Assembly (NCBI GenBank): GCA_016490735.1
Contig: JAEMWC010000216.1
Span: 826,001-890,000, forward strand
Length of the DNA stretch: 64,000 nucleotides
Direction of reading: 5' to 3'
From: Pachyseris speciosa
Lineage: Eukaryota > Cnidaria > Anthozoa > Scleractinia > Pachyseridae
Shown: positions 14,168 through 43,270 of the stretch, one piece after another
Layout: each line of letters begins with the position of its first letter
Position numbering within the stretch: position 1 is the stretch's first letter
Translations under genes and position numbers: made by a program
The notes under the pieces: generated by a model
Seen by the model: the letters and a program-made list of their open reading frames with translations, nothing else
Told to the model about the DNA's origin: nothing
Databases searched by the model: none

Positions 14168-14940
14168 TTTATTACAATTAAAGGATTTTAGCGTCCCCTT
14201 GATGCAATCAAAGACGCCATTAATACGCGCGCAGCGCAAACTAAGAATAGACCTTTTCTCAGTTTTCCCACAGATTAAAATGAATTTATTTACAAATGTG
14301 GGTAAAACTATATTGACCATTCTCGTTCCTCTCTTGGATGCCGTACATAAGACTAAGCACTGTTAAGGGAAAGCGCGGCTGTTGATTCTATTTGATTTGT
14401 ATTTAATAATAGTTATGTTATACATGTTCTATTCAAACACAGTGCTCATAATACGAGGAGAGTACACTTTGTTTCCCTTCTCTTTAATAAATGAAGCATC
14501 TGCATTCACGTATTTTTCTCGTAGAAATTTTACGCCTCATAAAGCATCAATTGAAAATTCACAAGCTAGCATCTTTCTCTTTTTACTGCGTCAACCACCT
14601 CATCTTTTAGCAATTCTGCGTCACTTTTTAACTTCGTACAGTAATTCAGGAATTCCCGCACTCAAGATCATCATCACAGGCCCCATCAATCTCGTTCTGC
14701 CGCACATCGGGCATGTCAATCTCAGCTGGCTTTCCTTTCTTTGCATTTCGTCTTTTCCTTTTTCGCTCCTCCTGAAGCCTTTTCTTCCACTCCTGTTTTG
14801 TGTCTCTTCTTCTCCTCTTTCGAATGTCGACGAGAGCGTTACCATTCGTCTTTCACTATCGATATTTTTTTCTACGTTTAACGACGTACAGCTGTATACC
14901 AGTTTTATTACAGGTTGGAAAATGATTCATCTCTGAAGAA
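14168..14940. repeat. 773-bp segment duplicated without visible difference (copy A)
   Basis: Copy A and the sequence at 16927-17699 (constant offset 2759) read as identical, although the surrounding tandem copies have diverged. Both carry the same 184-codon open frame (14382-14936), which has no recognisable domain and is compositionally hydrophobic. I treat it as repeat sequence. It indicates recent gene conversion or duplication, or an assembly artefact. Confidence 0.85.
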
Positions 14941-16926: not shown

Positions 16927-17699
16927 TTTATTACAATTAAAGGATTTTAGCGTCCCCTTGATGCAATCAAAGACGCCATTAATACGCGCGCAGCGCAAAC
17001 TAAGAATAGACCTTTTCTCAGTTTTCCCACAGATTAAAATGAATTTATTTACAAATGTGGGTAAAACTATATTGACCATTCTCGTTCCTCTCTTGGATGC
17101 CGTACATAAGACTAAGCACTGTTAAGGGAAAGCGCGGCTGTTGATTCTATTTGATTTGTATTTAATAATAGTTATGTTATACATGTTCTATTCAAACACA
17201 GTGCTCATAATACGAGGAGAGTACACTTTGTTTCCCTTCTCTTTAATAAATGAAGCATCTGCATTCACGTATTTTTCTCGTAGAAATTTTACGCCTCATA
17301 AAGCATCAATTGAAAATTCACAAGCTAGCATCTTTCTCTTTTTACTGCGTCAACCACCTCATCTTTTAGCAATTCTGCGTCACTTTTTAACTTCGTACAG
17401 TAATTCAGGAATTCCCGCACTCAAGATCATCATCACAGGCCCCATCAATCTCGTTCTGCCGCACATCGGGCATGTCAATCTCAGCTGGCTTTCCTTTCTT
17501 TGCATTTCGTCTTTTCCTTTTTCGCTCCTCCTGAAGCCTTTTCTTCCACTCCTGTTTTGTGTCTCTTCTTCTCCTCTTTCGAATGTCGACGAGAGCGTTA
17601 CCATTCGTCTTTCACTATCGATATTTTTTTCTACGTTTAACGACGTACAGCTGTATACCAGTTTTATTACAGGTTGGAAAATGATTCATCTCTGAAGAA
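16927..17699. repeat. 773-bp segment duplicated without visible difference (copy B)
   Basis: Partner of 14168-14940. At 16926 the diverged second tandem unit stops in mid-sequence (AAAATTCACA) and jumps back to an earlier point of the unit, so about 390 bp are represented twice in a row, once diverged and once identical to copy A. Confidence 0.85.
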
Positions 17700-26275: not shown

Positions 26276-28653
26276 TATCTTTGCATTAAAATTTGATGAT
26301 GATCTAAAATTGTTTTTTCATCAAATATAAAATCTAAGTATACACAGAAAAAACTAATACAACCATCTAAAGGTGCATTGGAATTTGGATCTAAATCACC
26401 AAAAGTCATTTGTTGACTACCGGTTCTATTAGCAGATGTAAAACTTCCTATATGTTTTTTGTTCTAATAGATTTTACTTTTTTCTGTATTTGGAGAAGAT
26501 AAATTATCCCAATGAACAGATAAACAATGCCAAACATTAATTTGACCTAAATCATATACGGAATAATCTGCTAATTTTGTGAAATTTTGTATAGATGCTG
26601 TTGGACCAAAATATACACAATTTGATTGATTAACACAACTTATAACTAAATTTGAACCATAATAGCTAACAAACTTATCATAACGGAGATGCAAGGATAT
26701 ACCTCAAAAATTCATGTGATTTGGTAAGCTGAAGCCACTCTAAAGGCACTAAGGCCACATGGTAGCGGGCATTACCCCTTAAATCTACCAAAGCAAAGAT
26801 TGAGCCCAAGCATTAGCAGCCATGGACAGCTGTTTTGGCCTTGTTAGGCCTCGTCAGCATGGCATAGCTAATGCTCAGGCTCAAGTACCCACATATCCAT
26901 AAAACAAGCAGTGAAAACGTAAAGCTTGCAGGATGTGGCTGGAGTGACAAGGATATACCTCACAAATTAATGTGATTTGGTAAGCTGAAGCCACTCTAAA
27001 GGCACTAAGGCCACATGGTAGCGGGCATTACCCCTTAAATCTACCAAAGCAAAGATTGAGCCCAAGCATTAGCAGCCATGGACAGCTGTTTCGGCCTTGT
27101 TAGCTCTCGTCAGCATGGCATAGCTAATGCTCAGGCTCAAGTACGCACATCTCCATAAAACAAGCAGTGAAAACGTAAAGCTTGTGGCATGTGGCTGGAG
27201 TGACAAGGATATAACTCCCAAAATAATGTGATTTGGTAAGCTGAAGCCACTCTAAACGCACTAAGGCCACATGGTAGCGGGCATTACCTCTTAAATCTAC
27301 CAAAGCAAAGATTGAGCCCAAGCATTAGCAGCCATGGACAGCTGTTTCGGCCTTGTTAGGCCTCGTCAGCATGGCATAGCTAATGCTCAGGCTCAAGTAC
27401 CCACATATCCATAAAACAAGCAGTGAAAACGTAAAGCTTGTGGGATATGGCTGGGGTGACAAGGATATACCTCACAAATTAATGTGATTTGGTAAGCCCT
27501 TAGAGTGGCTTCAGCTTACCAAATCACATTAATTTGTGAGGTATATCCTTGTCACTCCAGCCACATCCCACAAGCTTTACGTTTTCACTGCTTGTTTTAT
27601 GGATATGTGGGTACTTGAGCCTGAGCATTAGCTATGCCATGCTGACGAGGCCTAACAAGGCCGAAACAGCTGTCCATGGCTGCTAATGCTTGGGCTCAAT
27701 CTTTGCTTTGGTAGATTTAAGGGGTAATGCCCGCTACCATGTGGCCTTAGTGCCTTTAGAGTGGCTTCAGCTTACCAAATCACATTAATTTGTGAGGTAT
27801 ATCCTTGTCACTCCAGCCATATCCCACAAGCTTTACGTTTTCACTGCTTGTTTTATGGATATGTGGGTACTTGAGCCTGAGCATTAGCTATGCCATGCTG
27901 ACGAGGCCTAACAAGGCCGAAACAGCTGTCCATGGCTGCTAATGCTTGGGCTCAATCTTTGCTTTGGTAGATTTAAGGGGTAATGCCCGCTACCATGTGG
28001 CCTTAGTGCCTTTAGAGTGGCTTCAGCTTACCAAATTACGTTAATTTGTGAGGTATATCCTTGTCACTCCAGCCACATCCCACAAGCTTTACGTTTTCAA
28101 ACTTATCATAACCTCCATTATCATGACCAAAAAGTCCATTTTTCCATGGATTTCCATCTGTATTTGAATTTAATTTATAAACAATGTAAATATTAACAAC
28201 ATTATTATTTAAATTGATTTGACTCATCATTCTTTGTGATCCATTAAACTTTAAAAAATAACGTCCATTATGTTTCTCAGCCTTGGTACAAATAGTGGGT
28301 CTTAAATTTAAAGTTGATTGAGTTGCATTATTTTCTTCATTTGAGAGAGCATATAATGTTTCAACTTTTTTGTTTTCATTTATATTTACAAAATTACTAT
28401 TCGCTCTGTCGATTTGATAAACACATTTTGAGTATAATCTAATATATTCAGAAACCCATAAATCTAAAAAACTATCACTAAGAATATCAGAAACTTGTGA
28501 TTTAATAACAGCATGATTAACATCATTGCCGGGTTTTACATTTGCCAAACGTTTGTTTTCAAGATCATAGTTCCCATCGTTTGTTAATTTAAATCCAGTT
28601 CCATCTTTACCTTTGACATTTATATGTTCTATTCTGTGGTTAAATATACCCAT
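26276..28653 (-). pseudogene. Viral fibre/adhesin protein interrupted by a fold-back insertion
   Basis: The ATG at 28653 has TCTA 12 bases upstream. The N-terminus MGIFNHR and the block GFKLTNDGNYDLENKRLANV match the N- and C-terminal blocks of the neighbouring collagen-like protein, so the two genes share modules. The next 170 residues are beta-rich (RYFLKFNGSQRMM, VVNIYIVYKLNS, GLFGHDNGG), as in LamG/concanavalin-like sheets. At 28112 the frame is cut by a 1413-bp insertion and resumes at 26684 after a 15-bp duplication (VSYYGSNLVIS...). It shifts frame again near 26464 and ends about 26276 after FFCVYLDFIFDEKTI. Likely a receptor-binding or surface fibre, inactivated here by the insertion. 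Confidence 0.75.
26685..28097. mobile_element. Fold-back element of inverted 256-bp tandem units with 15-bp target duplication
   Basis: Units starting CAAGGATATACCTCACAAAT recur near 26692, 26949, 27203 and 27460 in one orientation. At about 27497-27510 the sequence turns (GGTAAGC-CCTTAGAGTGGCTTCAGCTTACC), and two and a part inverted units follow to 28097. CAAACTTATCATAAC flanks both sides (26670-26684 and 28098-28112), a perfect 15-bp target duplication inside the fibre gene. No ORF of substance. A solo hairpin of the same family is at 13436-13612. The architecture resembles Foldback/Galileo-type elements; the class is not established. Confidence 0.9.
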
Positions 28654-31515: not shown

Positions 31516-31531
31516 ATACTATTAGATTAGA
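31516..31531 (-). promoter_or_regulatory. TCTA-N12-ATG late-type promoter of the collagen-like gene
   Basis: On the minus strand TCTA (31531-31528) is followed by 12 bases and the ATG at 31515. A second TCTA overlaps at 31526-31523. Confidence 0.7.
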
Positions 31532-32168
31532 TAACACCATAAAAGTTTCTCTTCACTGTTTTCATTGGCTTGTCAACATAACAGAAAGAATATGGTTTTT
31601 TAGTTGCTTCAATATACTTTTGCTTATCGATTCCGAGTTCTTGGGAGATCAAGTTTCTTTCTCTTGAAGATGGAAAATCATAAAGGTAGAAGTGGCTACA
31701 ATTAAGCCTAATAGATTTTGGGCATCCATAGAATGACTGCGTTAGGTACAGTACTGAGCAATTTTTGTGACGACCTTGAATAAAATAGTTTATAATTTGA
31801 TCTTGTTTCTTATCCGTTACAAAATCATCGAACACAACTAATCGTTGCAATTCAGTGTCTTGAATTTGTTCAACAGGTAAAATTTCATCTTGACTGCATA
31901 TTAAAACGGAACAACCAACTTGTTTGCTTATTTTATCCATCTTTTGCTGTAGAAATTGATATTTATCTTGATCTACATTCTTTGCGTATAAAAAAATCTG
32001 ATCATAGTAAACTAAAGGTTCTAAAATTAAATGTAAAAATAACGTAGTCTTTCCGGAGCCGCTGTTTCCTGCTAGCAACATTCTAAATGTATCTTTTGGC
32101 ATATATGGATACAACTGTCTGAAAGACTTGTTTGAATCCTGAAAAATGTCATAATTTGGGATTTCCAT
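31527..32168 (-). CDS. A32-like genome-packaging ATPase (FtsK/HerA superfamily)
   Basis: An open 213-residue frame with Walker A AGNSGSGKTTLF at about residue 35, Walker B LVVFDDF at about 113 and a sensor-like LYLTQSF near 140. Length and motif order fit Polinton/virophage/NCLDV packaging ATPases, which drive DNA into preformed capsids. ATG at 32168 has TCTA 12 bases upstream and shares a 36-bp divergent promoter with the plus-strand gene at 32205. No break is visible, so the gene may still be functional or was inactivated only recently. Confidence 0.9.
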   Translation of the reverse strand: MEIPNYDIFQDSNKSFRQLYPYMPKDTFRMLLAGNSGSGKTTLFLHLILEPLVYYDQIFLYAKNVDQDKYQFLQQKMDKISKQVGCSVLICSQDEILPVEQIQDTELQRLVVFDDFVTDKKQDQIINYFIQGRHKNCSVLYLTQSFYGCPKSIRLNCSHFYLYDFPSSRERNLISQELGIDKQKYIEATKKPYSFCYVDKPMKTVKRNFYGVI

Positions 32169-34173: not shown

Positions 34174-35460
34174 ATGTCAAACTATCGTAACTCAAAATTT
34201 ATAGAGCGTTATGAAGATATTGATTTTGAGCTTGAAACAGCACTAAATACTGTAGTTGCAAACAATGCTCATCAGAAAAAATCGGGATACCGTTTCGTTT
34301 TAGATAACCAAGGGGAGACAACGCCATTTGATTGGTTTAATGCTCGTTTGAATGTTGATTTCATTGTAAAGAAGCTTGCAGATGGAGCTGATATAGATGC
34401 TGATGATCGAAACGGTATTGTAAATTCATCTCACTCTCTTATTAACACCATAAATGTAAAAATGAACGGCGTCGATGTTTATGAATGTAGAGATGCTAAC
34501 CAAGCTACAAATAACAAGTCTTTACTTAAATATTCACAAGGTTATGCTTCAAGTCAAGGAACAAATGAGTTCTTCTATCTTGACACTAACAGACATGCTG
34601 AAGACAGAGTAGCTCAAGCTAATTATAACAAAGGATTTGCATCAAGAAAGCTACTGTTGATTGGTGCAAATGGAACTGTGAATGTAGAAATACCATTGAA
34701 TAGATACGGATTTTTCAAGAGCCTCTGGAATGAACTTTTGCATAATTCAAAAATAGAGTTGAACCTTACACTTGAAGGTGATGCAAATTTAATTTGGCAA
34801 GCTGCAGATGAGTGTCGTGTTGTACTCACAAAATTTCAATTAATCGTCCCTCGTATTATTTTTAATGCTGAAGGTAAAAAACTATATATGGATAAATATC
34901 TTGATACGAGAAAATGGACATACATGAGAGAAATGGTTGAGAGAGGAAATTCAACAAGACAACAGACAGCTAATTTTAGAATTTCAACGGGAATAAACAA
35001 ACCTAGACATGTTTTTGTTTTTATAATCAATGACGCAAATAATGAATCTCAGACAGCCAATAAATTCTTGTACAACACATTTTCAGTTGCAAATAACCGA
35101 ACAATGACTTCATGTCATTTAGAAGTGGGAAATGGAAACGATTATCCAGAGGTTCATTATAAGCCATCAACTGAACCATCAAGGGTATTCAGAGATGTTT
35201 TGAAGTACGTTGAAGCAATTAATGAGTTTTCTGATTCTACTCTTTTAAATAGAGGTAATTTCGGTTCCATATTTCCTTCCATTTCTTTCGATCTAACGAA
35301 ACAAAAACAGGATATCAAAGATGGAATGACTAAACTGACATTCAAATATACATTAAGTGGTGGAACAAATGCGGACTATAGTGTTTATGCATTAGTCCTT
35401 TATGAACAGGATGTTGAAATGAGAAAGACTGATGGAAAATTAATTCTGAGATCGATGTAA
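34174..35460 (+). CDS. Double-jelly-roll major capsid protein (Polinton-like virus type)
   Basis: An open 428-residue frame. The strand pattern and phrases fit DJR capsid proteins of Polinton-like viruses: DWFNARLNVDFIVKKLADGA with DDRNGIVNSSHSLINTINV near the start, NKSLLKYSQGY and FFYLDTNRH, VNVEIPLNRYGFFKSLWNEL at mid-length before the second barrel, ECRVVLTKFQLIVPRI, and KLTFKYTLSGGTNADY near the end. About 430 residues is at the short end for this fold, nearer to PLV than to classical Polinton MCPs. Trimers would form the capsid facets. TCTA is 12 bases upstream and the frame has no break, unlike many neighbours. Confidence 0.8.
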   Translation: MSNYRNSKFIERYEDIDFELETALNTVVANNAHQKKSGYRFVLDNQGETTPFDWFNARLNVDFIVKKLADGADIDADDRNGIVNSSHSLINTINVKMNGVDVYECRDANQATNNKSLLKYSQGYASSQGTNEFFYLDTNRHAEDRVAQANYNKGFASRKLLLIGANGTVNVEIPLNRYGFFKSLWNELLHNSKIELNLTLEGDANLIWQAADECRVVLTKFQLIVPRIIFNAEGKKLYMDKYLDTRKWTYMREMVERGNSTRQQTANFRISTGINKPRHVFVFIINDANNESQTANKFLYNTFSVANNRTMTSCHLEVGNGNDYPEVHYKPSTEPSRVFRDVLKYVEAINEFSDSTLLNRGNFGSIFPSISFDLTKQKQDIKDGMTKLTFKYTLSGGTNADYSVYALVLYEQDVEMRKTDGKLILRSM

Positions 35461-37678: not shown

Positions 37679-38646
37679 GTGGGCATACTAGATTCAGCCG
37701 CAGATATGGCACTTACAGGATTTCTTCAGCATGGTGTTCCTTTCTTAGCAAAGAAGGGGGTTGAGATGGGAAGATATGGGGTTTCAGAATTAATGAGAAA
37801 TCCTAAAATTCAAAGCCGTGTAATTGACTACAGTATAAAAAAGGCAAAACCCGTTTTACAAAAAGTTGGTAAAGAGGCTTTAAATCAACTTTCAACCAAA
37901 GTACGCCCTAATATTCGTTATAAAACAGATAGACCCGATGTAGACAAAGTGGGTCGTGGTATTCCCATTCCTTTTCCTTTTGTTGATCTCAAAAAAGCTT
38001 GGGATGTTGTTTCAAACCCTAATCTTTTTAAAGGGCCTGAAGTTTCAGCCGAAGAGGGAAGAAAAATGGTTGCCAACTACAAACGGCAGTACGCTGAATA
38101 TAAAAAGAAAGGTGGAACGCGAAGTTATGGTTCTTGGATAAAATGGAAAGGATACGGTGCTGGAATATTAGGTGATATTATATATATGCTAAACCAGAGG
38201 ATTTGAATAAATGGGCCTCTCAAATTCACTCTCTCATTGGAAGCGATGTTGATATTCATAAAGCTATTGGAAAACTTCCAAAACCTAAAAAAGGATGGAC
38301 ATTACCGGGGCATCTATACACAGGTCCATACAATCCTTTAAATAAGCAACTTTCGTATGATCCTCAAACTGGTGAAATAATTGAGATATATCAGCAGCCA
38401 ACCGGTAAAACAGATGCTGTCGCCATGCAACATGATGTTGATTACTCTATTTGTAAAGATGACAAGAAATGCAAACAGAAAGCAGATCGTAAGATGGTTA
38501 AAGCCCTTGATGCCATTCCATGGAAAGATAGACAATGGGGACATATGTTAGCTCGTAATGCAATTGCAACAAAGGAGAAACTAGGTTTGGGTATTCCAAA
38601 AAACGGAAAAAGCCGTCGAGTGAAGAAAACTGGCAAGAAAAATTAG
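37679..38646 (+). pseudogene. Viral phospholipase A2-like (parvovirus VP1u-type) protein, frame-broken
   Basis: First part 37679-38206 (GTG at 37679, no ATG): helical, with GVPFLAKKGVEMGRYGVSEL and NQLSTKVRPNIRYKTDRPD. The frame changes near 38170-38190, and the second part runs to 38646 with LPGHLYTGPYNPL and AVAMQHDVDYSICKDDKKCK, then KADRKM and NAIATKEKLGLG. YTGPYNPL fits the calcium-binding loop and HDVDY the catalytic His-Asp of the PLA2 domain of parvovirus VP1, where it serves membrane penetration during entry. Polinton-like viruses of invertebrates can carry such a domain. All key PLA2 residues are present in the second part; only the joining frame is broken. Confidence 0.7.
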
Positions 38647-39545
38647 CAGATGAATTACATAAAACTATAAAACGCAACTTTACACGGCGGCGTGTGATTG
38701 TAAATAAAATTGATGAAATATGGGCTGCTGATCTTGTTGAAATGCAAAAATTCAGCAAATGGAATAAAGGTTACAAATATCTTGTAATGGTTATCGATGT
38801 TTTCAGTAAATATGGTTGGATTGTTCCTCTGAAGGATAAAAAGGGTGAAACTGTAACTGAAGCATTTCAAACAATATTCAGAGATAGAAAACCACAATAT
38901 CTATGGGTTGATAAAGGTAAAGAGTTTTACAACAAACACTTGAAGGACTTGCTAGAGAAAAATGGGATACATACTTACTCCACTGAAAATGAAGAAAAGT
39001 CCTCTGTGGTTGAAAGATGGAATCGAACAATAAAATCCAAAATGTGGAAGCAGTTCACTGTTCAAGGCAACACACAGTACATAGACATATTAAAACAATA
39101 CAACAATACAAAACATTCAAGCACAAAGATGACTCCCACAGAGGCTTCAAAGAAAAAGAATGAAGGAATAGTGTATTTTAATTTATACGGTGAAATGGAA
39201 ACATTACAACATAAACCAAAATTTAAAGTAGGTGATAAGGTTCGAATTAGTAAATACAAAAGAAAGACTTTTGATAAAGGTTATACTCCAAACTGGACTG
39301 AAGAATTATTCGTAATAGATAAGATTCAATACACTAATCCAATAACATACAAAATAAAAGATCTAAGAGGTGAAGATATTGAAGGGAGTTTTTATGAACC
39401 TGAATTATTAAAAGCCAAACAAAATGTTTTCCGCATTGATAAAGTCATTCGGAGGGATTACAAGAAGAAACAAGCTTTAGTAAAATGAAAGGGATATAGT
39501 GATAATTTTAATAGTTGGATACCATTTAGGGATTTAAAAGATATG
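38590..39545 (+). pseudogene. Retroviral-type (rve) integrase with chromodomain, premature TGA
   Basis: The frame is open from about 38590, overlapping the PLA2-like gene's 3' end. The GTG at 38694 is only a nominal start. DDE catalytic residues: Asp in AADLVEM, Asp in VDKGKEFYN, Glu in SSVVERWNR. VIDVFSKYGWIVPL lies between. The C-terminus has an SH3-like part (FKVGDKVRISKYKR) and a chromodomain beginning near FRIDKVIRRDYKK. A TGA at 39486-39488 stands where chromodomains usually have Trp, and the same frame stays open beyond it to about 39545. Polinton integrases insert the element DNA; the chromodomain may target chromatin. The catalytic core is undamaged, so a truncated protein could still be made. 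Confidence 0.85.
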
Positions 39546-39570: not shown

Positions 39571-40401
39571 ATGATATATATTATGTGTATGCAAAAATAT
39601 TCTTATAATAATAAAGAATTGAATGTATCAATAGATTGTTATCGTGATGATAAAAATGATATATGGTTCAGAGGTAGAGACATTGCTACTATTCTTGAAT
39701 ATAAAAATCCACAAAGAGCAATCAGAAATCATGTTGTATCTGATGATAAAATCTTGATAGATCTCAAAATAATCACAAATAGCAGGGGGAACAAAACGGT
39801 CCCTCAGGTCAATAGCAGGGACACCAAAACGGTCCCTCAGGTCGAACAATCTTATAAGTGTTTTTTTTATAAACGAATCAGGATTTTATTCACTTTTATT
39901 ATCATCCAAAAAACAAGAAGCTGAAAATTTTAAACATTGGGTTACATCAAAAGTATTACCATCAATGAGAAAACAAATATATTACAAGCAGTTCAACGAC
40001 AGAAATAATAATATGCTATTGATTGAAAATGAAAATGATTTGCACTACAAGGTTGTATCATTTATCAGAAAAAATATAAAGATGCTTTAATGATTGCTGG
40101 TCTTGGTGAAAATCAAATAAGCTCTGATATGAGAATCAAAAGTTACAACAAAGGATACATGTCCGGACAATGTGATTTGATGTTAATGAATCCAACTAGA
40201 AAATACAATGCTTTGTGTCTAGAATTTAAAAGTCCAACAGGTGTGTTCCAAGTTTCGGATAAACAAACAAATATGAAGCAGTTATATGAAAAAAATAAGT
40301 GCAAATATATTATGAGCAATTGTTTTGAAGATTTGATTTATGAAATAACTAAACACATGGAGGAAAGCAAATCATATTTATCACGTAGAGGAAAAAACTA
40401 A
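39571..40401 (+). pseudogene. Bro-N domain / VRR-NUC-like nuclease fusion, frame-broken
   Basis: ATG 39571 starts a Bro-N (baculovirus-repeated-ORF type) DNA-binding domain: DDKNDIWFRGRDIATILEYK and PQRAIRNHV. It is followed by a small in-frame tandem duplication (NSR-x-x-KTVPQV twice, 39780-39842). After a frame change near 39860 the Bro-N end continues in another frame (ESGFYSLLLSS, HWVTSKVLPSMRKQ) to about 40090. A third frame (40090-40401) has QISSDMRIKSYNKGYMSGQC, then D and, 20 residues later, EFKSP with a following KQ, the PD-(D/E)xK pattern of VRR-NUC nucleases. Bro-N plus nuclease fusions occur in large DNA viruses. TCTA follows at 40407 before a very short ORF. Confidence 0.75.
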
Positions 40402-40579
40402 CTTTATCTAACCTATAATTGATGGTTTTAGTAGAGAGAATTTATTAACTCTACTATTTTTTGTTCATTTTTAATGAACCAAGAATTGTAAAAATTTTTA
40501 TTTCATTTTTTTAATTTAATTAAAACCATTTAACTCCTATAATTCCCCCATATTTTTCAAATTTATTAGAAAAAAATAC
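40402..40579. other. AT-rich intergenic gap between convergent genes
   Basis: Separates the Bro/VRR-NUC (plus) and eRF1 (minus) 3' ends. It holds a TCTA at 40407 and AT-rich runs; no gene or clear terminator structure is recognised. Confidence 0.4.
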
Positions 40580-41589
40580 TTAACATGATGTAACTAATTC
40601 CATTTCTTTATATTTGTAATAATCATTAGTATCATTTGTAATAATATAAGATAATAAATATTCTTTATGGGCTATTGAGATATTTTCAACTCCAAAATTT
40701 AACATTTCAATATTTTCTGCTTTAGATATTATTTCTTCAATTTTCTGAATAATAGCATTTTCTTTTTCATCTAAATTAAAATTAGTATAATAATCCCTAA
40801 ATATTCTTTCTAATGTACTTTGATCTAAATTTTCACTTACTTTATAAATAGTATTAGGAAATATTGTTTAATTAACTTTTGTTTAAGTAATTCTTTCTTA
40901 AGATTATTTTGACCTATTATAATTAAATTCTCAATTATAGATTCTGTATTATTATTTTTCATAAAACAATAAATTACTTTTTCAGATATATATGTAAAAT
41001 ATCTTTCTTTTTTTTCAACGCCAATACGATGAATTCTTTTTGCACTTTGTCCACCTTTTCTCGTTGTATTATGAAGAGATACTTCTTTTGAATGTTTTAA
41101 TTCAAATTCTATATGTAATCCTGTTACAATTACTAAATAAAAATCAACTTTTTTTCCAGATACTGCTACAATTCCAAAAAATATTTCATTTTTAAACATT
41201 TCTAAAATAGATTCTAAATAAAATTTTTAGCACATATATAATCTGATTTTAAAATTCTTTTTGGAGGTTTAATTCAAATAGATTGAGAATAATTTAAATT
41301 TTCGTCAAACATAACACTTATTTTTTGTAATACCAGCACAAAGAATAAGACCATTTTCTGGAGCTTTAAATTCTTTATAATTTTTTATTTGATAAATAGC
41401 TGCTTTTAATGCAGTTATAACATCTTTTCTTACTATTTTACTTTTTATATTTTGTGCTGTTGACATTTCAAATATTAATTTATCTAAAGATAAAGATAAT
41501 TTTTCATTTGATCTTATAAAAAGTGTAATTAAACTTGTACCTATTGAAAGTGAAGTAGCTTCATTCATATTTTTAATTAATGAATTCAT
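40580..41589 (-). pseudogene. eRF1-like translation termination factor carried by the virus, frame-broken
   Basis: Three consecutive pieces give the full eRF1 order. N domain (41589-41305): SIGTSLITLF with the GTS motif and STAQNIKSKIV with the stop-codon-reading NIKS motif, then ENGLILCAG. After a shift near 41305 and a TGA at 41276-41274, the same frame has SDYICAKNF, the YxCxxxF motif, and then the M domain (41199-40837) with FFGIVAVSGKKVDFYLV and TRKGGQSAKRIHRI, the GGQ peptide-release motif. Domain 3 lies in another frame (about 40868-40580) with MLNFGVENISIAHKEYLL. Total about 335 codons, shorter than the roughly 430 of cellular eRF1. It is strongly diverged and AT-rich, so not a recent host copy. 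Flanked by PolB and the Bro nuclease within the element. Confidence 0.85.
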
Positions 41590-41603
41590 TTGATTTTATA
41601 TTA

Positions 41604-43270
41604 TTATTTTATATAATTTTGTATTTTATAATGACCATAAGCATAAGATTTTATTCCATCATTATGTAAATATCTTTTGTCATCGAAACAACTCAATGAG
41701 ACTTCATTAATTTCATATGATCCTAAAACATGATTTTCAGATCTTATGGTTTTCATAGTGTGATATAACTGCTTATTCTCAAATAGCGTTTGCTTATAAT
41801 CCTCATGTTTAATTATATTTTTAATAATATTCTTTTTGATACCCTTAGTAGTTTTCCCACCCCCTTTTTGATTGTCTTTTATATAACTATACATTTTTGA
41901 TCTCAAACCGATGAATTCAATTATTGAAATTCCAGCAGCCTCATCCTTAAATTTTCCGATCACTTTTTTGTTTGATTTATCGAAAAATTGATTGTTTTCA
42001 GGATAGTCACTGTTATCAAACATGTCTTTGTCTTTCCAACAATCTTGATAAACGTCTTCAACTTCGATTTCATAAGTTAAGCTATCCGTGTCTGTGAATA
42101 ATAACTTAGCTTTATCTCCATACTTCTTTTTAATGTAGTTGTAGTGAAAATCATACATCAGAGTTTTGCTTAAATCAAGAATACACATTCCCACATATGC
42201 CGGCCTGTTAAGGGTGAGTGTTTCTTTAATCTTGTGAACTGCAACGAGATTTTCATTAAAATTTTTACTGCTGACGAATGTTGGTTTGGATGTTATTTTC
42301 AACAATTTTTTTTCACAAGTTATTAGTCTAACATCAACTCTCTTCCGCAGATTCTCCATTGTTTTACCAAATACACTGTTATTCATGAGTTTGAAGAAAT
42401 CTTTTTCAAATGCGTTTTTAGCATTAGTTCTTTTCTGAGTGTTGAAATCGATGTATTGTTTCAACCAGGGAGACTGATTGAATTCTAATACTCTATGAAC
42501 TTTTGTAACTTTCAATCCAAGATCCATATAAAGTTGAAGGTTTCTGTAATGCAGAACATATTTCTCTTTATTACCCAAGGTCGGTATAAGTTTGTGTACC
42601 AACCCAGTTGATATATTGTATTTATCAGCTATCTTTTTACAATAGTCTGAAAGCATGCTATCAGTTACTTTAATCTTTTCAGGTCCAAACTAGAGCTCAT
42701 AAATTGGAAACTATCAATGAAGGTTAGATTACCAAGCATGAAAGCCATGTATTTTTCCATATTATTAGGAATTGCATTGATATTCATTTGACAGTCTTCA
42801 CCTTTCTTATTTATTTTTGTAAGTATGCTTTTTAACTATTTCACCAATCTCTTGCATAATGAAATGTGAATCATAACCTCTTAGATTATGAAATATTACT
42901 GGTATCTTATTAGTTATTTTAAAGTTTATATTAGAATCTTGGTGAGCTGATCCTCAGTATTTTCCAGTTATATGACAGTGATCTCTAACTCTAACATCAG
43001 TTTTTTTGTATTCTTTTTCACAAATATGACAACTATCAGCTTTTTTAAATTCTTCTTCATTTTCTTCCGTCATTCTTTATGGTTTGTTGAATTCTTTTTT
43101 CATAACCTTCTTACAATATTTAACTTCCTCCAACATAGCTTCCATAAATTTATAAACAGCTTTTTCACCTCTATATGTTTTCAGTGATTTGGTGAATTTA
43201 TCATCATAACAACAAACAACTTTGTATCCATAACCACAATCTGTATGTTTTTGATAAGCTTCAGTGTATG
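41604..43270 (-). pseudogene. Protein-primed-type family B DNA polymerase, N-terminus lost and broken
   Basis: The long open part 42656-41604 (350 residues) holds palm and thumb: polymerase motif B-like FFKLMNNSVFGKTMEN, motif C LLFTDTDSLTYEI, and a KFKDE-x-x-G-x-x-I-x-EF-x-GLRSKMYS block typical of Polinton and virus PolB. Upstream pieces (42657-43265) in several frames show CHICEKEYKK and VRDHCHITGKY, an exonuclease motif in FHNLRGYDSHFIMQEIG and YRGEKAVYKFMEAML. Stops (TGA after ITGKY, TAA near 43080) and shifts break them. The TPR-like and exonuclease N-terminus beyond 43270 is missing, replaced by other repeat DNA. No synthesis activity is expected. Confidence 0.85.

What the first reader, a model, noticed from the sequence alone, without database searches (positions are those of the whole stretch)
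40580..41589. A Polinton-like virus carrying an eRF1-type translation release factor
Seen: in one colinear minus-strand region inside the element are GTS, NIKS, YxCxxxF (YICAKNF) and GGQ motifs in the right order and spacing, plus a domain-3-like segment. Known: these motifs read stop codons and release peptide in eukaryotic/archaeal eRF1; release factors are known in some giant viruses but are not core Polinton cargo. Inference: the virus modified host termination, perhaps to favour readthrough or recycling on its own AT-rich, frame-overlapping genes. Strong divergence argues against a recent host copy.
Basis: partly seen in the sequence, partly recalled or inferred. Interest (0 to 1): 0.88.

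Follow-up and report, generated by a model that had tools for sequence, protein, structure and literature searches.

The report
Polinton with giant-virus-type release factor
An integrated animal virus (a Polinton) holds a decayed gene for a protein-synthesis stop factor of the kind known from giant viruses, with what looks like the same built-in frameshift switch by which the factor would control its own production.

Summary
The eRF1-like gene is real (minus strand, 41589-40523). It lies in a Polinton/Maverick between PolB-like and VRR-nuclease-like genes. It is no host copy: host eRF1 is a separate spliced gene, and grouping the window family with eukaryotic eRF1 is rejected (p-AU 3.6e-7). 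Best viral fold matches of its relative P0123 are giant-virus eRF1s.

The first frame break is probably not decay. Domain 1 ends at GTT TGA C and homology resumes one base on, as at the +1 recoding site shown for Mimivirus eRF1 (CUU UAG C; PMC3521657). T-TGA-C is kept in 10 of 10 same-family copies in this genome; in 5 of 10 protein relatives the reading frame begins at or just before this junction. Other breaks differ between copies; all 10 carry further damage. A divergent copy (C459) has no shift.

Sibling Polintons have the slot empty or filled by another ORF, so eRF1 is optional cargo. Its GC3 is 4-7% against 25-30% for the element.

Verdict: new variant of a known kind, a mimivirus-type, probably self-regulated release factor in a small animal virus. 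Frameshifting is inferred, not shown.

The parts
41305..41589 (-). eRF1 domain 1 (GTS, TAQNIKS), 94 codons and the UGA
   Evidence: Pfam eRF1_1 E 4.6e-5; PDB eRF1
41304..41310 (-). putative +1 shift site GTT TGA C
   Evidence: position; T-TGA-C in 10 of 10 family copies
41217..41304 (-). end of domain 1 (YICAKNF) in the +1 frame, with a second UGA private to this copy
40840..41226 (-). eRF1 domain 2 (GGQ)
   Evidence: Pfam eRF1_2 E 3.8e-7 on 41199-40840; 65% identity to P0121 over 91 residues
40523..40867 (-). domain-3-like tail in another frame, with one in-frame UAA
   Evidence: no Pfam eRF1_3 match
40420..41621 (.). variable cargo slot (approximate ends)
   Evidence: comparison with eRF1-less siblings L043, L045-L049, L054, L067
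41604..42656 (-). PolB-like gene, C-terminal part
   Evidence: label recalled from motifs; no match in Pfam or NCBIfam; at least 116 copies in the genome; upstream PolB-like pieces at 43367-42810
40090..40401 (+). VRR-nuclease-like gene
   Evidence: Pfam VRR_NUC E 0.0038, 17.7 bits, below the cut-off of 23.8
39571..39924 (+). Bro-N gene
   Evidence: Pfam E 1.1e-10
38694..39488 (+). rve integrase
   Evidence: Pfam E 9.3e-11
38203..38646 (+). phospholipase A2-like gene
   Evidence: Pfam Phospholip_A2_4 E 3.4e-10
34174..35460 (+). capsid-like protein
   Evidence: label recalled; 2072 homologues at E <= 0.001, best 120 listed; no match in Pfam, PDB only E 0.18
31527..32168 (-). A32-like packaging ATPase
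   Evidence: Pfam Pox_A32 E 2.5e-15

Best explanation
The segment is a decayed copy of a virus-type eRF1 gene, carried as optional cargo by a subfamily of animal Polintons in the slot between the PolB-like and VRR-nuclease-like genes. In working ancestors it was most likely expressed like Mimivirus eRF1 and bacterial RF2. Ribosomes reach UGA-C after GUU. When release activity is ample they stop and give a 94-residue domain-1 fragment; when it is scarce some slip +1 and make the whole factor of about 355 residues with NIKS, YxCxxxF and GGQ. The gene would so hold termination capacity steady during infection. Shown here: homology, clade, genomic setting, conserved T-TGA-C, and the frame change at that point. 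Inferred: frameshifting itself, the feedback, and benefit to the virus.
For: eRF1 profiles and PDB matches. Clade with P0121-P0125, P0130 and two divergent copies 100/99, with P0126-P0129 100/98, apart from eukaryotes and archaea; window family with eukaryotes rejected, p-AU 3.58e-7. Fold of relative P0123: Catovirus eRF1 E 3.2e-22 and other giant-virus eRF1s. PolB-like gene beside eRF1 in 10 of 10 family copies, VRR-like gene on its other side in 7 of 10. T-TGA-C in 10 of 10, nine GTT and one TTT. Of 10 relatives, P0125, P0126, P0130 begin M-F and P0129 V-F at this column, P0123 nine codons before the same M-F. P0123's out-of-frame start allows exactly the window's AGITKNKCYV; 0 of 200,000 random peptides did, and the other offset does not. 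Mimivirus: +1 shift at CUU UAG C shown in E. coli (PMC3521657); CUUUAG consensus in further mimivirus relatives (PMC6582330).
Against: The divergent C459 copy reads the junction in one frame with no shift. All 10 family copies are broken elsewhere. Variable sites among eight copies show no codon pattern on either side (11/16/13 before, 26/18/32 after). No RNA structure at the site (z +1.78). No upstream UGA-C readthrough stop as in Mimivirus. DNA of P0121-P0130 not seen; four of these 10 start downstream of the junction and P0124 starts M-F but then diverges. The protein search could not return proteins longer than about 357 residues, so uninterrupted longer relatives would be missed. GUU is not CUU. 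The 10 family copies share ancestry, so they are not 10 independent events. No expression data.
Confidence: 0.68

Rival explanations
1. The eRF1 cargo is virus-derived, but the +1 break is only an old inactivating mutation of a founder copy that spread with the element; the gene was dead cargo.
For: All 10 family copies are damaged and share ancestry (95-99% identity among the eight aligned). The divergent C459 copy is in one frame at this point. The codon-position test shows no constraint.
Against: The frame also changes at the same column in distant relatives: P0123 is open from there to its end, P0126 and P0129 (47% and 38% identity to the window piece) begin there. The site has the recoding motif known from giant-virus eRF1 (PMC3521657).
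Confidence: 0.22
2. A processed or retrocopied host eRF1 gene landed in the element.
For: The pieces are intronless and match eukaryotic eRF1 in PDB.
Against: Host eRF1 exons on C167 are 78-91% identical to animal eRF1; the window piece is 31% identical to the host protein over 80 residues and 65% to P0121. p-AU 3.58e-7.
Confidence: 0.02
3. Origin only, compatible with the best explanation: this Polinton subfamily took the gene lately from a very AT-rich virus, separately from the C459 lineage.
For: GC3 of eRF1 pieces 4-7% against 25-30% for six other genes and 4-7% against 28-35% for PolB in seven other copies. Of 30 PolB loci fetched, 27 show no eRF1. C459 and C31 copies have GC3 24% and 17%, and in C459 eRF1 faces the other way.
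Against: All Polinton-linked copies fall in one clade with no named giant-virus row inside it. Drift of the gene itself is not excluded. Relatives' DNA not seen.
Confidence: 0.45

Closest known systems
Mimivirus R726 / Megavirus mg280 eRF1 (PMC3521657) and klosneuvirus, Bodo saltans virus, tupanvirus eRF1 (PMC6582330)
   Same: eRF1/aRF1-type factor with NIKS, YxCxxxF, GGQ; shortened tail; +1 shift motif NNU-stop-C in the first part of the gene; virus clade apart from cellular eRF1
   Different: Carrier is a Polinton of an animal; site is GUU UGA C, not CUU UAG C; no upstream UGA-C readthrough stop; copies here are decayed. Mimivirus sequences themselves were not compared residue by residue.
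Bacterial RF2 (prfB) programmed frameshift (CUU UGA C, as quoted in PMC3521657)
   Same: +1 shift at a stop followed by C in a release-factor gene; same UGA C
   Different: Unrelated protein family; P-site codon GUU; no Shine-Dalgarno-type element was sought
Marseillevirus eRF1 (PMC3521657, PMC6582330)
   Same: virus-encoded eRF1
   Different: Described there as eukaryote-like and without internal stops
Polinton/Maverick elements of animals (PMC8097293, passages)
   Same: rve integrase, PolB-like and capsid-like genes (labels recalled), ATPase, variable accessory genes
   Different: No release-factor cargo in the papers listed or passages seen

Membership tests
eRF1/aRF1 class-I release factor | Domain 1 with GTS, NIKS and YxCxxxF | tested here: met
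   Pfam eRF1_1 E 4.6e-5, at the cut-off; motifs
eRF1/aRF1 class-I release factor | Domain 2 with GGQ | tested here: met
   Pfam eRF1_2 E 3.8e-7; P0123 fold best PDB match aRF1/eRF1 E 1.3e-13, TM 0.43 of query
eRF1/aRF1 class-I release factor | Domain 3 | tested here: inconclusive
   No Pfam eRF1_3 match; tail aligns with P0121
eRF1/aRF1 class-I release factor | Releases peptide at stop codons | not testable with these tools
   Needs a biochemical assay
Mimivirus-type recoded eRF1 | Virus clade apart from eukaryotic and archaeal factors | tested here: met
   100/98; Mimivirus rows themselves not held; giant-virus eRF1 models are the best viral fold matches
Mimivirus-type recoded eRF1 | +1 shift site NNU-stop-C between NIKS and YxCxxxF | tested here: met
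   10 of 10 family copies; not in the divergent C459 copy
Mimivirus-type recoded eRF1 | Upstream UGA-C readthrough stop | tested here: not met
   Domain-1 frame open from its ATG to the junction in 7 of 10 copies, this one included
Mimivirus-type recoded eRF1 | Full-length protein made by frameshifting | not testable with these tools
   Shown for Mimivirus in E. coli (PMC3521657); not here
Polinton/Maverick | rve integrase and A32-like ATPase | tested here: met
Polinton/Maverick | Protein-primed PolB and double-jelly-roll capsid protein | tested here: inconclusive
   Labels recalled; Pfam, NCBIfam and PDB sequence searches do not confirm them; PHROGs and Pfam see only an endonuclease VII-like stretch in a sibling PolB
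Polinton/Maverick | Terminal inverted repeats | tested here: not met
   None of 30 bases or more joining the two ends in 22000-50000; the PolB side of this copy is in pieces, so this may be truncation

The most novel reading that the evidence does not exclude
A self-regulating release-factor gene, stop-codon frameshift switch included, is a mobile module shared between giant viruses of protists and small integrating viruses of animals, so that some animal DNA viruses carry their own feedback-controlled translation termination.
Probability: 0.48. Interest if true: 0.85.

Novelty: new variant of a known kind. Interest (0 to 1): 0.73.

Why it matters
Virus-encoded eRF1 has been discussed as a trait of giant viruses, and its RF2-like frameshift switch as a puzzle of their origin (PMC3521657). 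The same gene type with the same kind of switch as optional cargo in an animal Polinton would show that neither a giant genome nor a protist host is needed. It would give independent comparative support for the switch and make gene flow between giant viruses and Polintons testable on one gene. It also warns annotators: gene finders appear to cut such genes at the shift site (relatives P0125, P0126, P0129, P0130; several viral eRF1 records of only 231-269 residues).

Tried and rejected
Viral contigs: eight scans (eRF1 piece, capsid-like protein, PolB-like protein, P0121, four alignments) gave no confirmed relative; even the common capsid-like protein gave none, so this says little. The prokaryote scan returned 11 archaeal aRF1 loci, used as outgroup. 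P0129 had no match in the phage collection. A processed host gene was rejected. Reading all breaks as programmed was rejected: the T-TGA-C junction is the one break kept in 10 of 10, others differ. The second UGA as a readthrough stop was rejected: only the window copy has it. The codon-position test was null. No RNA structure at the site. PolB and capsid labels were not confirmed by profiles or PDB. The setting of P0121-P0130 could not be read. Three weak rows (C327, C140 twice, 26% identity) were not examined. Papers PMC6259494, PMC8877843 and PMC6563228 appeared in the listings and were not opened.

Full report
WHAT IS THERE. On the minus strand, 41589-40523, lie the pieces of an eRF1-type release factor. 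Domain 1 (94 codons, 41589-41308) holds GTS and TAQNIKS and matches Pfam eRF1_1 at E 4.6e-5, exactly at the cut-off. Domain 2 holds GGQ and matches eRF1_2 at E 3.8e-7. PDB searches give eRF1 chains at the top for both pieces. YICAKNF and a domain-3-like tail lie between and after, in other frames. Pfam does not recognise the tail, but it aligns with the relative P0121.

THE ELEMENT. The gene lies between a PolB-like ORF (41604-42656, minus) and a VRR-nuclease-like ORF (40090-40401, plus; Pfam match below cut-off), in an element with Bro-N, rve integrase and PLA2-like genes, an A32-like ATPase and a collagen-like gene, and a capsid-like protein with 2072 homologues. The names PolB, capsid and penton are recalled; profile and PDB sequence searches do not confirm them. 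No terminal inverted repeats were found and the upstream part of PolB is in pieces, so this copy is probably truncated.

THE GENOME AROUND IT. The window is C216:826001-890000 of an unnamed 984-Mb genome. P0121 gave 20 match rows there. They fall on 12 places that I examined (17 rows) and three weak rows that I did not. Ten places, the window included, are one family: 89-100% identity to the 221-base junction query, and 95-99% among the eight copies aligned over the gene. Two places (C459, C31:188585) are divergent. The PolB-like gene is beside eRF1 in 10 of 10 family copies and the VRR-like gene on its other side in 7 of 10. In C459 the same neighbours are present, but eRF1 faces the other way; around C31:188585 none of the other probes matched. 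The PolB search scored 116 matches of 3965 candidates. Of 30 such loci fetched (L041-L070), 3 hold eRF1 (the window among them), 8 have VRR next to PolB without eRF1, and 19 show neither within the 1500 bases held. In L048, L054 and L067 the slot is about 100 bases; L045, L046, L047 and L049 hold a different ORF there (stop-to-stop 115-128 residues in three, broken in L049); L043 has a short slot without such an ORF. eRF1 is therefore optional cargo in a variable slot.

ORIGIN. In a 25-row tree of domain 2 (129 columns) the window family, P0121-P0125, P0130 and the C459 and C31 copies form one clade (100/99). With P0126-P0129 they form a clade (100/98) apart from four eukaryotic eRF1s, the host's own included, and seven archaeal aRF1s. 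Holding the window family with the eukaryotes is rejected (p-AU 3.58e-7), as is holding the whole clade with them (p-AU 0.0054). Four of the 11 archaeal rows were left out of that tree; the trees with all 11 agree. Long branches are present and flagged. Host eRF1 on C167 is 78-91% identical, exon by exon, to animal eRF1, and the window piece is 31% identical to it. An AlphaFold model of P0123 (mean pLDDT 76, residues 1-40 poor) matches aRF1/eRF1 in PDB at E 1.3e-13. Among viral models it matches Catovirus eRF1 at E 3.2e-22, then Yasminevirus, an unnamed entry, Hyperionvirus, Orpheovirus and Bodo saltans virus. That P0126-P0129 are giant-virus proteins is inferred; only P0129 carries a name (peptide chain release factor subunit 1).

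THE SHIFT SITE. Domain 1 ends TGT TAT GTT TGA C, and homology resumes as DENLNYSQ one base on. All 10 family copies keep T-TGA-C, nine with GTT and one (C1116) with TTT. The second TGA is private to the window copy, and other breaks differ from copy to copy. The domain-1 frame is open back to its ATG in 7 of 10; after a +1 shift 1 of 10 (L014) is open to the end, and that one is broken in domain 1. Among the 10 protein relatives, P0125, P0126 and P0130 begin M-F and P0129 V-F at this column; P0123 begins nine codons before the same M-F. P0121, P0122, P0127 and P0128 start further down and say nothing; P0124 starts M-F and then diverges. Read one base off, P0123's VQGLLKTSVMF allows exactly the window's AGITKNKCYV. 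None of 200,000 random peptides (eight free residues plus VMF) did, and the other offset does not. So in P0123 too the end of domain 1 very probably lies in the upstream frame. In Mimivirus and Megavirus, +1 shifting at CUU UAG C and CUU UAA C was proposed, and in Mimivirus shown in E. coli with mass spectrometry (PMC3521657: abstract and sections 6-10 read). CUUUAG is given as consensus for further mimivirus relatives, among them Bodo saltans virus, klosneuviruses and tupanviruses (PMC6582330: passages). The site here is of the same kind, in the first part of the gene, with the bacterial-type UGA C.

RESULTS AGAINST. The C459 copy reads the junction in one frame: the switch is absent or lost in one Polinton lineage. 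Variable sites among eight copies show no codon pattern (11/16/13 before, 26/18/32 after). No RNA structure supports the site (z +1.78; 196 of 200 shuffles fold at least as well). There is no upstream UGA-C stop. The DNA of the protein relatives was not seen, and proteins over about 357 residues could not be returned. No family copy here is intact.

COMPOSITION. GC3 of the eRF1 pieces is 4-7%, against 25-30% for PolB, VRR, integrase, capsid-like, penton-like and ATPase genes; in seven other copies eRF1 has 4-7% and PolB 28-35%. The divergent copies have 24% and 17%. This fits a later pick-up from an AT-rich donor, or drift of this gene alone.

HOW IT LIKELY WORKED. As in RF2 and the Mimivirus gene, scarce release activity would lengthen the pause at UGA-C and let some ribosomes slip to make the whole factor; ample activity would end synthesis after domain 1. 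This would keep termination capacity steady during infection.

NOVELTY. Listings: eRF1 with Polinton 3 papers; eRF1, frameshift, virus, Maverick 0; adintovirus with release factor 0; Polinton with peptide chain release factor 2; Polinton with release factor 4; Maverick, translation termination, transposon 2. No title or abstract start reports such cargo. Passages searched in PMC6401483, PMC10120064, PMC8097293, PMC7805220, PMC11071296, PMC11071308, PMC6905037 and PMC11814242 show none. Most subscription papers are outside this library.

Noticed in passing
window 26685-28099: 256-base tandem repeats in inverted arrays hold type-I hammerhead ribozymes (Rfam RF00163 at 27331-27375 minus, 27636-27680 plus, 27892-27936 plus); one unit overlaps the end of ORF 28036-28653 of the element.
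   Followed up: partly
L045, L046, L047, L049, between the PolB-like and VRR-like genes: Sibling Polintons hold another ORF of unknown function in the slot where the window family holds eRF1.
   Followed up: partly
genome G000 (list): The genome holds many Polinton PolB-like genes 85-88% identical to that of the window, several in open frames of about 1,300 codons, which suggests recent activity of siblings without eRF1.
   Followed up: no
L051 1-2532: A sibling PolB-like protein matches endonuclease VII (Pfam PF02945 E 2.1e-6; PHROGs) near its middle, while no polymerase family matches.
   Followed up: no
window 14382-14936 and 17141-17695: Two ORFs with identical translations 2,759 bases apart, a sign of a local duplication.
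   Followed up: no
L022 703-4142: A divergent Polinton of the same genome carries eRF1 in the same slot, in reverse orientation and without the +1 shift.
   Followed up: yes
L071 (C817:132600-142590): PF03463 matches three places on C817, but eukaryotic eRF1 probes for domain 2 find nothing in this stretch; it may be an eRF1 paralogue such as Pelota (name recalled).
   Followed up: partly
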